Source of the DNA: Ignavibacteriae bacterium HGW-Ignavibacteriae-4 | GTDB taxonomy: Bacteria; Bacteroidota; Ignavibacteria; Kapaibacteriales; UBA2268 | Length of the DNA: 64,000 bases | Assembly: GCA_002839765.1 (NCBI GenBank) | Contig: PGYR01000007.1 | Span: 46,149-110,148 of the forward strand | Reading direction: 5' to 3' | Shown here: piece after piece, positions 15,356 through 20,166 of the stretch | How the letters are laid out: each line of letters begins with the position of its first letter | How positions within the stretch are numbered: the first letter of the stretch is position 1 | Position numbers and translations under genes: made by a program | The notes under the pieces: generated by a model | What the model saw: the letters and a program-made list of their open reading frames with translations, nothing else | Database searches by the model: none | Told to the model about the DNA's origin: nothing

Positions 15356-15451
15356 CTTCCCCAACATTCACCTCATATTTCAATAATCCAAATATAATTT
15401 GTAAGTTAACTTTTCGTAACTTGTTATCATGTAGGAATATTGGAATTTCTG

Positions 15452-17200
15452 ATGAAGAGATTATATTTAATATTCGGATTAATCTTCTGTCTTTCGCTTG
15501 CCTTGCACAGCGAAGAGGGAGTGAAATACATAACTGGTAAAATCACCTTAGCCGATGGTGGAGATGCCAAAAGAGAGGTCTATGTCTATTATAATCGCTT
15601 CCAAAATAGCGATGATAATCTGATGAAAATAGTCCAAGCGGACCCGAATGGTGAATTCAAAGTGCCAATCCCAACTGATATTAATTATGCTTCATTACAC
15701 TTAGCCGCTCCCGGTTATGTATCATATATGACCGATTATATAGAAGGAGACAAAAACCCAAGAGTGGAAGCTATTCTATATAACAGGGCAGTTCCTGAAA
15801 AATTCGATTCAGTCGGGGTAATGATATTTACAAACAAAGGAAGAGTCTTCGAAAAACTTCCTATAGGTTATTCCAGATTCGTCAAATTAAAAGTTGATTT
15901 TAGTGATAAGAAATATGCAAATATTACTGAAAAAGGTGAAGACACAATTAGGTACACACTTTATTTTGCAGAAGGTTCAATTACCCCAGCCGAGCACAAA
16001 GGCAAATGGAAATACGATAATAATGGCGATTATTATGCCGTTGCAATTACAAAGAAAAAAATACTCTCTTTGAGTATAGACCTAGCAAAGTACAGATATT
16101 CAGATGACCCCGAAGAGCAAAACCTGACTACTGGGCGATGGGTGGATTCCCCTGTGAATGCTCTCTATAACCAAGTTCTAGAGCTACTACCATCACCGGA
16201 GGTAGCTCGACTAAGACAAAACTTTTATTACTATGTCTTTCAGTATAATAAAGAAGCCATAAAAACTCTCGATTCTACTGAAATAGAACGTCGAAAAATG
16301 GGAACAATAATTAAATTTCGTAGGTATATAAGTACAAATGATAGCTTATTGGGTTTAGTTGAATCTCCATTTCTGAAAGATTATTTGAATCTGACAAAAA
16401 TGGACTTGCTAAGTGCTCCTGACTCACTGAAAACTTGGGAAGATAAATATGTGATAATGCAATCTTTGCAGATGCTTCCGACTGTGTTTTATTCCGAGTT
16501 CAACGATGTGATTAATACTAAGGAGTTTAAAGAAAATCCTCAGTATTACTTAGATGCACTAGAAGATCTTTTTGCCAAATCAAAGAATAAGCGAAATAAC
16601 TATTATTTGCGATATGGATTATACTCTAGATTAGCTTCAAATGAGATAATAAAAGAACCAAGGTATAAGGAATATCTGATTAAAAATCTTAAAGAAATGG
16701 CTGAGTTTGACGATTTAGACAGTTGGCCAAAAACAGGAATACCAAAAACTTTAGCACAACTAGAACTTGACACTATGGACTATGCCCCAGATTTTTCATT
16801 CAAAACTATAGACGGCAAAGCACACAAGCTATCAGAATACAAGGGGAAGTGGGTATTACTTGATTTTTGGGGTACATGGTGTGGTCCTTGTGTTATGGAA
16901 ACTCCCTTTTTAGTAGATGCTTATACTACACTCGGTGGTGATAAATTTGAGATGATTAGCATAGCAAGCGATAGAAATGCGAAAGTAGTTAGTGATTATG
17001 TAAATAACAAGAAAATGAAATGGGTTAACACTATTGCACTAGAAGGATATGCGGAAGGAGTACTCAAGCAATACGGTATTACTAGTTTCCCGACTTTGAT
17101 GCTAATAGACCCCGATGGCAAGTTCGTAAAGATGAAAGCACACGAGCTACGCGGCGAGTTACTTTTGCCTTCACTCAGAGCTAAGTTGGAGAAGGAGTAG
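15452..17200 (+). CDS. Exported TlpA-fused protein, copy 1 (582 residues)
   Basis: The start is the ATG at 15452, because MKRLYLIFGLIFCLSLALHS is a signal peptide; an upstream in-frame TTG adds four residues only. Layout: signal peptide, a carboxypeptidase-regulatory-like Ig/CNA-B-like domain (about 22-110: KYITGKITLADGG, GEFKVPIP, LAAPGYVSYM), a beta-rich then helical middle part (110-430), and a C-terminal TlpA/ResA-type thioredoxin domain with WGTWCGPC (cysteines 477 and 480) and the cis-Pro loop TSFPTL. It probably works as a periplasmic or surface thiol-disulfide protein. A paralogue of identical length follows directly. Confidence 0.82.
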   Translation: MKRLYLIFGLIFCLSLALHSEEGVKYITGKITLADGGDAKREVYVYYNRFQNSDDNLMKIVQADPNGEFKVPIPTDINYASLHLAAPGYVSYMTDYIEGDKNPRVEAILYNRAVPEKFDSVGVMIFTNKGRVFEKLPIGYSRFVKLKVDFSDKKYANITEKGEDTIRYTLYFAEGSITPAEHKGKWKYDNNGDYYAVAITKKKILSLSIDLAKYRYSDDPEEQNLTTGRWVDSPVNALYNQVLELLPSPEVARLRQNFYYYVFQYNKEAIKTLDSTEIERRKMGTIIKFRRYISTNDSLLGLVESPFLKDYLNLTKMDLLSAPDSLKTWEDKYVIMQSLQMLPTVFYSEFNDVINTKEFKENPQYYLDALEDLFAKSKNKRNNYYLRYGLYSRLASNEIIKEPRYKEYLIKNLKEMAEFDDLDSWPKTGIPKTLAQLELDTMDYAPDFSFKTIDGKAHKLSEYKGKWVLLDFWGTWCGPCVMETPFLVDAYTTLGGDKFEMISIASDRNAKVVSDYVNNKKMKWVNTIALEGYAEGVLKQYGITSFPTLMLIDPDGKFVKMKAHELRGELLLPSLRAKLEKE

Positions 17201-17308
17201 GTAAAACACTTACACCTAATATACTTGATTTTTTCTTTTAGATTATATCTATATTTTGTAATTTTAACTTCAAAATTTAATTTACTTACATATCTTTCAA
17301 AGGAATTT

Positions 17309-19057
17309 ATGAAAAAGATACTATTTGCTGTGATGCTATTATTTTTCACTACTTTAGCTTTACTAAGTGAAGAAGGGGTGAAATACGTAACAGGTAAAAT
17401 TACATTAGTCGATGGTGGAAACGTTACCCCCGAAGTTTATGTTTATTATAATCGATTCAGAAATGATAATAATAATTTGATAAAAGTAGTAAAAGCCGAC
17501 AAAAATGGAGAATTCAAAATAGGGATTCCCAAAAGTATAAATTATGCAGATATTCAACTTGCAGCTCCAGGATATGAAGCATATATGACCAAATTTATAG
17601 AGGGGGATAAAAATCCAAGGGTCGAAGCTACTCTCCACACGCGTGCCATTCCTGAGCATATTGATTCTGTTGGAGTTCTGTTATTCAATAATAATTCTCA
17701 GACTATAGATTTGTTCCCGATTATTGGTAATAGTACAGCAGATATTTCAATTGATTTGAACGAAGAAAAGTATGAGACAGTTAAAAAGAAAGGAACAAGT
17801 TCTCTAACATATACTTATCTTTTCAATGGAAGTTCAAATACACCTGCTGAGGGTGATAATAGTTATGAGTATGATAATAATGGTGACTATAACCGAGTTA
17901 CTATTGCTCATAATGATAAATTAAATTTAAAAGTTGATTTGAAAAAGTACAGAAGGACTGATGATGCTACGCAACAGAGTCTGACTACTGGACATTGGGT
18001 TAATTCACCTATTAATGATAGATATAATGATTTTTTAGAATTGATGCCAACTGAAGAAGTGGCAAATTTGAGTCCAAAATATTATTACTTTGTTATGCAG
18101 AAAAATAAAAATACAATCAAAGATCTGACTCCTGAAGATTTAGAACAAAGAAAGCAGAATACAATCTCTCAATTCTATAGCTACCTAAAAATAACCGATA
18201 GTTTGTTAACAATAGATAAATCAACATATCTTAATGATTATTTGAAAATGACAAAGCTGAAAATCCTTAATGCTGCTGATACGGCTAATAAATGGGATGA
18301 TTATTACAAAGTATTGCAATCCGTCCAAGAAATTCCAACTGAATATTATTCTCTCTTCAACGATGTAGTTTACTCAGATGAATTTAAAGAAAATCCGAAA
18401 AAATTTATTGATATTTTGGAGGAAAACTATGACAAATCAAAAGATTTGAGAAATAGATATTATAAACGATTCGGTCTTTACTCAACTCTTACTCGTACTG
18501 AACTAGTTAATGACCCCATTTATAAAGAATATTTAATCAAAAATATTAATGAGATAATTAAATACAAAAACTTGGATAGTTGGATAGCTGAAACTGCTCC
18601 CAAAGCTATAATTCAATTAAATTTGAGTTCAATGGAGTTTGCTCCCAACTTTTCATTCAAGTCAATTGATGAAAAGCAATATAAACTATCTGATTTCAAA
18701 GGCAAATGGGTATTACTTGATTTTTGGGGGACTTGGTGTGGTCCTTGTAGAGGCGAAACACCACACTTGGTCAAAGCTTATGATGAACTTGGAGGCGATA
18801 AGTTTGAAATTATAAGTGTTTCCAGTGATGGTGGTACCGAAGTATTGAAAGATTATATAGTTAAAAACAAAATGAAATGGACTAACACAATTGAGTTAAA
18901 AGGATATGCCGAAGGTGTACTAAAACAATTCGGTATCACTGCATTTCCGACCCTGATGTTGGTCAATCCAGATGGTAAATTCGTAAAAGTAGAACAAGAA
19001 GAACTACGTGGCGAACTACTCATACCAACATTAGAAGCTAAGTTGGAGAGGGAGTAG
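17309..19057 (+). CDS. Exported TlpA-fused protein, copy 2 (582 residues)
   Basis: Starts at ATG 17309 after an AAAGGAATTT site; the longer frame from 17225 lacks a signal peptide at its end, whereas MKKILFAVMLLFFTTLALLS from 17309 is a perfect one. Domain order and length equal copy 1: Ig/CNA-B-like N-domain, helical middle, and TlpA domain with CGPC at the same residues 477-480 and AFPTL cis-Pro. The N- and C-domains are closest to copy 1 while the middle is more diverged, so the pair is a tandem duplication. A near-match promoter (TTG, then TATATTTTG) lies at 17225-17258, so it may be transcribed independently. Confidence 0.82.
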   Translation: MKKILFAVMLLFFTTLALLSEEGVKYVTGKITLVDGGNVTPEVYVYYNRFRNDNNNLIKVVKADKNGEFKIGIPKSINYADIQLAAPGYEAYMTKFIEGDKNPRVEATLHTRAIPEHIDSVGVLLFNNNSQTIDLFPIIGNSTADISIDLNEEKYETVKKKGTSSLTYTYLFNGSSNTPAEGDNSYEYDNNGDYNRVTIAHNDKLNLKVDLKKYRRTDDATQQSLTTGHWVNSPINDRYNDFLELMPTEEVANLSPKYYYFVMQKNKNTIKDLTPEDLEQRKQNTISQFYSYLKITDSLLTIDKSTYLNDYLKMTKLKILNAADTANKWDDYYKVLQSVQEIPTEYYSLFNDVVYSDEFKENPKKFIDILEENYDKSKDLRNRYYKRFGLYSTLTRTELVNDPIYKEYLIKNINEIIKYKNLDSWIAETAPKAIIQLNLSSMEFAPNFSFKSIDEKQYKLSDFKGKWVLLDFWGTWCGPCRGETPHLVKAYDELGGDKFEIISVSSDGGTEVLKDYIVKNKMKWTNTIELKGYAEGVLKQFGITAFPTLMLVNPDGKFVKVEQEELRGELLIPTLEAKLERE

Positions 19058-19076
19058 AACAAAATCGGTGTCCTTT

Positions 19077-19144
19077 TTTAACACCCCGTCCTGCTTCGCA
19101 GTCCACCCCTCTTTGAAAAGAGGGGATTTACTTACATCTAATTA
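19077..19144. repeat. 68-bp direct repeat with internal hairpin, copy A
   Basis: Aligns ungapped at offset 305 with 19382-19449. The first 50 bases are identical, four bases differ (19127-19130), and the last 14 (CTTACATCTAATTA) are identical again. It contains a perfect 8-bp hairpin (CCCCTCTT / AAGAGGGG, TGAA loop) at 19106-19125. It is GC-rich relative to its surroundings and resembles dispersed intergenic palindromic elements. Confidence 0.9.
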
Positions 19145-19154
19145 CGTAATAATA

Positions 19155-19355
19155 TTATCTATTCTTATCCTCAAAGAATTCCCCATCGTGTAAATACAAG
19201 GCATATCTGAGTACAAATGTAAGGGTTATAGCAATCAGTATTTCTAGTAGTAAATTGTTCATCCCTAATAGGAACAAACTATTTATAACAAGCATATAGA
19301 AAAAGACATCTAATGCTATCTCTCTAAGTACTAAACTGAAGTTTGATTTTTTCAT
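19155..19355 (-). CDS. Small two-helix membrane protein, unknown
   Basis: A 66-residue protein with two hydrophobic stretches (about 11-32 and 35-51) joined by a short polar turn, a positively charged N-terminus (MKKSNF) and an acidic/basic tail (DGEFFEDKNR). The ATG is preceded by AT-rich sequence without a clear ribosome-binding site. The gene exactly fills the space between two copies of a 68-bp direct repeat, so it could be a mobile passenger or a chance frame. I recognise no family. Confidence 0.45.
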   Translation of the reverse strand: MKKSNFSLVLREIALDVFFYMLVINSLFLLGMNNLLLEILIAITLTFVLRYALYLHDGEFFEDKNR

Positions 19356-19381
19356 TTTTAATTGAAAATTGTTGAATATTC

Positions 19382-19449
19382 TTTAACACCCCGTCCTGCT
19401 TCGCAGTCCACCCCTCTTTGAAAAGAGGGGAATACCTTACATCTAATTA
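19382..19449. repeat. 68-bp direct repeat with internal hairpin, copy B
   Basis: Second copy of the element at 19077-19144, same orientation, hairpin at 19411-19430. Its last base abuts the original stop codon of the hepT reading frame (19450-19452, minus strand). Confidence 0.9.
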
Positions 19450-19788
19450 TTAAGTTGAAATTTTTCGTATTAGTTTCTTCAAAATAGGTAAGTCATTCTT
19501 TAATATATCCCATACTATTTTCTCATCAATCCCAAATTATTGATGTATAATGATATTTCGGAATCCTATAATGTCTTTCCAATTTATTAGCGGATATTCG
19601 GATTTTAATTCATTGCTAATTCTACTACTTGCTTCTCCAATTATTTCGAGCTGTCTGATCGAAGCATTTTTCATCATAGAATTGGACTCAAAATCTGAAA
19701 AGCCAACATCATCAATATAATTTTCAATTTCATTGATTGCATTAAGTATATGTTTCAACCTTGCCTTATCCCCGCTCCTATCTCGCAT
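19450..19788 (-). pseudogene. hepT: HepT-like HEPN toxin (DUF86) interrupted by a stop at the HxY tyrosine
   Basis: The open part codes for 83 residues ending RNIIIHQ and then TAA (19537-19539). Reading through, the same frame continues FGIDEKIVWDILKNDL to a natural stop at 19450-19452, giving 112 codons, the normal HepT length. HepT is a HEPN ribonuclease with an RxxxxHxY motif, where R and H are catalytic and Y is AMPylated by MntA. Here R and H are intact and the Y codon is the stop. The frame overlaps mntA by 11 bases as in functional pairs. It is either a recent pseudogene or a truncated product without the last helix. Confidence 0.8.
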
Positions 19789-20071
19789 ATATCAGTTGCC
19801 GTTCTTTATTTACAGTAGGGGAGATGTACTTAGAAATTCCTTTTGTAGAAACTAAATCAACTTTTCTGCCTAATAGCTCGCCAAGTTCTCTTTGCATTCT
19901 TACGAATAGCAAACCAATTGATTTGCTGTAATCTAACTCAACTAATATATCTATATCGTTTTCATTATCAGCGGTGTTTCTAACAACAGAGCCAAAGAGA
20001 TATGCTCTAATAATTGGCTTATCTTGGAAGTAATTTTTTATTAATTCTATATGTTTAGCTGTTAATTTCAT
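19778..20071 (-). CDS. mntA: MNT-domain nucleotidyltransferase, antitoxin of HepT
   Basis: MntA antitoxins AMPylate the HEPN toxin HepT and so neutralise it. The protein is 97 residues from the ATG at 20071; a TTG two codons upstream is less likely. The nucleotidyltransferase signature GSx10DxD is complete (GSVVRNTADNENDID), followed by ILVELD and the RKVDLVS strand carrying the third acidic residue. The enzyme therefore looks active although its target tyrosine codon in hepT is now a stop. Overlap of 11 bases with hepT indicates one transcript. Confidence 0.85.
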   Translation of the reverse strand: MKLTAKHIELIKNYFQDKPIIRAYLFGSVVRNTADNENDIDILVELDYSKSIGLLFVRMQRELGELLGRKVDLVSTKGISKYISPTVNKERQLIYAR

Positions 20072-20166
20072 AATCAAAACTACATATAATTAGTTGTATT
20101 TTCAAATATACGTAATTCATTCTTGAATTGTCGCCCTTTTTATTACTTTTTCCCAATTACCTTGAT

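What the first reader, a model, noticed from the sequence alone, without database searches (positions are those of the whole stretch)
19450..19788. Stop codon exactly at the AMPylated tyrosine of HepT
The hepT frame ends RNIIIHQ-TAA and then continues in frame for 28 codons of normal HepT C-terminus to a natural stop. In HepT the motif is RxxxxHxY and the Y is the residue MntA modifies. A one-base change (TAT or TAC to TAA) removes both the control site and the last helix, while mntA keeps GSx10DxD. Either the toxin has just died or a short form without the modification site exists. The latter would be notable.
Basis: partly seen in the sequence, partly recalled or inferred. Interest (0 to 1): 0.65.

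Follow-up and report, generated by a model that had tools for sequence, protein, structure and literature searches.

The report
HepT toxin gene broken mid-motif
A bacterial toxin gene of a well-known toxin-antitoxin pair has recently been cut short by a stop codon that happens to fall on the residue its antitoxin modifies; this is almost certainly an ordinary dead toxin whose antitoxin is still intact, not a new short form of the toxin.

Summary
On the minus strand, hepT (19788..19450) reads 83 codons to RNIIIHQ, then TAA exactly at the Tyr of RX4HXY. It continues in frame for 28 codons of normal HepT C-terminus. The upstream, overlapping mntA keeps GSX10DXD.

The best reading is a recent nonsense pseudogene. 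The tail after the stop is as conserved as tails of intact relatives. In-frame stops are common in hepT (16 of about 155 copies in 395 genomes of the phylum) and fall all along the gene. About 4% of single-base paths to a stop lie at this codon. Two other copies with a stop at this Tyr turned up in one class; both sit in loci with a further lesion.

In sampled loci, hepT was broken with mntA intact 18 times; the reverse was never seen. Three congeners lack the module; one shows a near-clean empty site.

A functional short form is unlikely. In published HepT mutants, single changes beyond the Tyr (positions 107, 118) abolish toxicity, while Y104A alone stays toxic and is less well neutralized. 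An active unmodifiable toxin should harm its host. Sequencing error cannot be excluded without reads but is less likely.

Ordinary decay; the position looks like coincidence.

The parts
19537..19788 (-). hepT, open part: 83 codons plus the premature TAA (19537-19539) at the Tyr position of RX4HXY
   Evidence: PF01934 68.7 bits
19450..19536 (-). remainder of the hepT frame after the stop: 28 codons of normal HepT C-terminus and the natural stop
   Evidence: profile match rises to 101.4 bits when read through as X; identity to relatives as in control pairs
19778..20077 (-). mntA, intact minimal nucleotidyltransferase antitoxin with GSX10DXD, overlapping the hepT start
   Evidence: (PF18765, PF01909)
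19434..20089 (.). approximate extent of the mntA-hepT cassette that is absent from three congeners; ends are estimates from alignment

Best explanation
A recently inactivated hepT in an otherwise ordinary HepT/MntA (HEPN/MNT, type VII) toxin-antitoxin module that lies as a cassette upstream of metG. One nonsense change at the Tyr codon ends HepT after the catalytic R and H but before the modified Tyr and the last helix. The product should be an inactive or unstable 83-residue fragment. MntA is still open because losing the toxin first is the safe order of decay. Shown: the stop, intact mntA, conserved tail, absence from congeners, one-way decay in the sample. Inferred: that the fragment is inert, and that the change is in the cell and not only in the assembly.
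For: Frame open on both sides of one TAA. Tail identity to relatives 44% against 42% for pairs of relatives of similar divergence, so the lesion is recent. 16 of about 155 hepT matches in 395 genomes carry in-frame stops, spread along the gene. hepT broken with mntA intact in 18 loci, never the reverse; 9 to 0 without the loci fetched by choice. mntA search found no broken mntA beside an intact hepT. Absent from three congeners. In S. oneidensis HepT, R97 and H102 are essential and single changes at 107 and 118, beyond Y104, abolish toxicity (PMC4621449). The missing part is the whole last helix, residues 89-118 in an intact relative.
Against: No reads and no second strain are at hand, so a sequencing error is open. 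The stop falls on a notable residue, which has a chance of about 4% for a random nonsense change, and two other Tyr stops exist in the class. AlphaFold still gives a confident partial fold for the 83 residues, which says little about stability or activity.
Confidence: 0.88

Rival explanations
1. Functional short form: the 83-residue HepT keeps R and H, acts as an RNase or as a partner of MntA, and escapes modification because the Tyr is gone.
For: R77 and H82 are kept. Y104A of S. oneidensis HepT is still toxic (PMC4621449). Two more stops at the same column exist in the class.
Against: Single changes at 107 and 118 abolish toxicity in S. oneidensis HepT, and all residues from the Tyr on are missing here. 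An active form that MntA cannot modify should harm its host. The tail is still conserved, which is not expected if a short form had been in use for long. Of the other two cases, L184 lost the catalytic His and L191 has a stop in its MNT neighbour.
Confidence: 0.04
2. Sequencing or assembly error: the cell carries an intact hepT.
For: The tail is fully conserved and mntA is intact, as in a working module. The genome is a draft of 110 contigs. Reads cannot be inspected here.
Against: It would be a single substitution outside any homopolymer. In this family 5-10% of copies carry stops, which is far above usual consensus error rates (general knowledge).
Confidence: 0.06
3. Read-through or reassignment: the TAA is decoded as an amino acid and full-length HepT is made.
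For: Only that the frame is open behind the stop.
Against: TAA ends the same hepT frame naturally. None of the 36 tRNA genes found has an anticodon for TAA, though the list of this draft lacks some normal tRNAs. TAA is not a known selenocysteine or pyrrolysine codon. The stop is followed by T, a strong context in E. coli (from memory).
Confidence: 0.02

Closest known systems
HepT/MntA (HEPN/MNT Class I, type VII) toxin-antitoxin of Shewanella oneidensis, SO_3166/SO_3165
   Same: Gene order mntA-hepT with overlapping ends, PF01934 and nucleotidyltransferase domains, GSX10DXD, R and H of RX4HXY
   Different: The Tyr codon is a stop here, and the last helix is not translated
Other hepT genes with in-frame stops in the phylum (L010, L013, L049, L182 and others)
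   Same: In-frame stop in hepT beside an intact mntA
   Different: Their stops lie elsewhere in the gene
hepT copies L184 and L191
   Same: Stop in the same Tyr column
   Different: L184 has also lost the catalytic His; L191 is a divergent relative whose MNT neighbour has a stop as well

Membership tests
HepT/MntA Class I toxin-antitoxin module | Toxin of family PF01934 | tested here: met
   68.7 bits for the open part, 101.4 bits with the stop read as X; cut-off 23.5
HepT/MntA Class I toxin-antitoxin module | Complete RX4HXY motif in the translated toxin | tested here: not met
   R77 and H82 present, Tyr position is TAA
HepT/MntA Class I toxin-antitoxin module | Adjacent MNT antitoxin with GSX10DXD | tested here: met
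   GSVVRNTADNENDID in the upstream overlapping gene
HepT/MntA Class I toxin-antitoxin module | Full HEPN helical bundle including the last helix | tested here: not met
   Last helix 89-118 of intact relative L035 lies wholly behind the stop
HepT/MntA Class I toxin-antitoxin module | RNase toxicity neutralized by AMPylation | not testable with these tools
   Needs expression and activity assays

The most novel reading that the evidence does not exclude
The 83-residue HepT is a retained product that can no longer be modified but still binds MntA or interferes with other HepT copies, and such Tyr-truncated forms arise repeatedly.
Probability: 0.03. Interest if true: 0.5.

Novelty: new member of a known kind. 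Interest (0 to 1): 0.15.

Why it matters
By itself it is a dead toxin gene. The by-product is more useful: in the loci sampled here hepT breaks while mntA stays whole, and the reverse was not seen. That is what a real toxin with a dedicated antitoxin predicts, and it could be counted across thousands of genomes as a natural test of which partner is the toxin.

Tried and rejected
A search of viral contigs for the window protein found no relative. A sequence search of solved structures with the 83 residues found nothing, though the fold search with an intact relative did. A DNA pattern for a stop at the Tyr in 391 genomes gave 8 hits; six are chance matches outside hepT, one is the window and one (L191) is a divergent HEPN relative. 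An automatic broken/intact label for mntA first counted stops outside the gene and was redone on the core only. A survey centred on another phylum was not possible. A multiple alignment of the empty site did not align the left flank well, so the cassette ends rest on the pairwise matches and on reading the sequences. One literature search on pseudogenes in toxin-antitoxin pairs gave no paper that I judged directly relevant from its list.

Full report
Check. The hepT frame on the minus strand (19788..19450) reads 83 codons ending RNIIIHQ, then TAA, then 28 more in-frame codons to a natural TAA TAA. PF01934 matches the first part with 68.7 bits and the whole with 101.4 bits when the stop is read as X. 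The column under the stop is Tyr in 126 aligned relatives. The upstream gene mntA (20077..19778) keeps GSX10DXD and overlaps the hepT start.

Is the position special? Of 50 single-base ways to make a stop in this gene, 2 fall on this codon, or 4%. In 395 genomes of the phylum, about 155 hepT matches include 16 with in-frame stops. Among the loci aligned here, stops lie at profile columns 6, 12, 17, 21, 23, 24, 29, 31, 32, 33, 35, 60, 71, 98, 103 and 104, with the window at 85. In 391 genomes of the class, which hold about 416 HepT matches (my sum of the table), two more stops at the same column were found. L184 has also lost the catalytic His. L191 is a divergent HEPN relative whose MNT neighbour has a stop too. 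If 5-10% of copies carry a stop, about one or two at this codon are expected, so three is not a clear excess. One of the three prompted the search, and one came from a search aimed at this codon.

How recent? After the stop the window protein is 44% identical to relatives, against 42% for pairs of relatives of similar divergence. The tail has not visibly drifted, so the change is recent, or not real.

The setting. Three congeners have no hepT at all. Between the small ORF at 19155-19355 and metG, L137 has 13 bases where the window has 728, and L136 has only a related repeat and a short stretch. The pair therefore looks like a gained cassette, or one lost in the others. The genome holds two more mntA-hepT pairs, both with open frames.

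What decays first. In the loci gathered, hepT was broken beside intact mntA in 18 and both were broken in 4. No intact hepT sat beside a broken mntA; the one flagged case, L104, is two complete mntA genes in tandem. Part of these loci had been fetched because their hepT carried a stop or matched only in part; without them the count is 9 to 0. These counts treat loci as independent, which was not tested on a tree. A reverse search from mntA flagged six matches with stops. G102 and G291 have the stop outside the gene, and G352 and G054 have a broken hepT as well. G278 has its stop near the end of the match and no hepT on the fetched stretch, and G322 is a fragment without hepT. The window fits the rule that the toxin dies first.

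Would the short form work? In S. oneidensis HepT, R97 and H102 are needed for toxicity and Y104 is not. Single changes at positions 107 and 118, beyond the Tyr, abolish it (PMC4621449). Y104A reduces neutralization by MntA (PMC7641770), although the earlier paper reported that neutralization still worked. In an intact relative (L035) the last helix spans residues 89-118, and its model's best matches are HepT structures such as 6m6u, 5yep and 7ae6 (E-values 0.005-0.03, probability 1.00). The window form lacks this helix and the end of the loop that carries the Tyr, a loop that takes part in dimerization in the Legionella protein (PMC11586414). The likeliest outcome is an inert fragment. If it were active, it would be a toxin that MntA controls poorly, which is hard to keep in a genome.

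Other readings. Read-through is unlikely: TAA is an ordinary stop here, no tRNA for it was found among 36, and the only in-frame start-like codon behind the stop is a TTG ten codons from the end. Sequencing error cannot be excluded without reads, but a substitution error is a less likely source than decay in a gene family in which 5-10% of copies carry stops.

Verdict. A real, ordinary nonsense pseudogene of a known toxin-antitoxin module, at a striking residue most likely by chance. Interest is low. The one-way decay is the part worth counting properly.

Noticed in passing
L004, L010, L013, L014, L026, L039, L049, L053, L058 and others: hepT is broken while the neighbouring mntA is open in 18 sampled loci; the reverse was not seen.
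   Followed up: partly
L184 (G674:C455) and L191 (G463:C62): Two other HEPN genes with a stop at the same Tyr column; L184 also lost the catalytic His, L191 has a stop in its MNT neighbour.
   Followed up: partly
19074-19144 and 19379-19449: A 71-base repeat with an inner palindrome (CCCCTCTTTGAAAAGAGGGG), 94% identical copies flanking a 66-codon ORF; its 32-base core occurs 11 times in the genome with up to 2 mismatches.
   Followed up: partly
19440-19450 and 20084-20093: Near-identical short stretches (ACATCTAATTA and ACATATAATTA) at the two ends of the mntA-hepT cassette; possibly a trace of its insertion, possibly chance.
   Followed up: no
15440-17200 and 17225-19057: Two tandem related genes for large proteins with a thioredoxin-like end (WGTWCGPC); congeners carry different numbers of copies.
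   Followed up: no
L104: Two different complete mntA genes and a partial extra hepT lie in tandem before an intact hepT.
   Followed up: no
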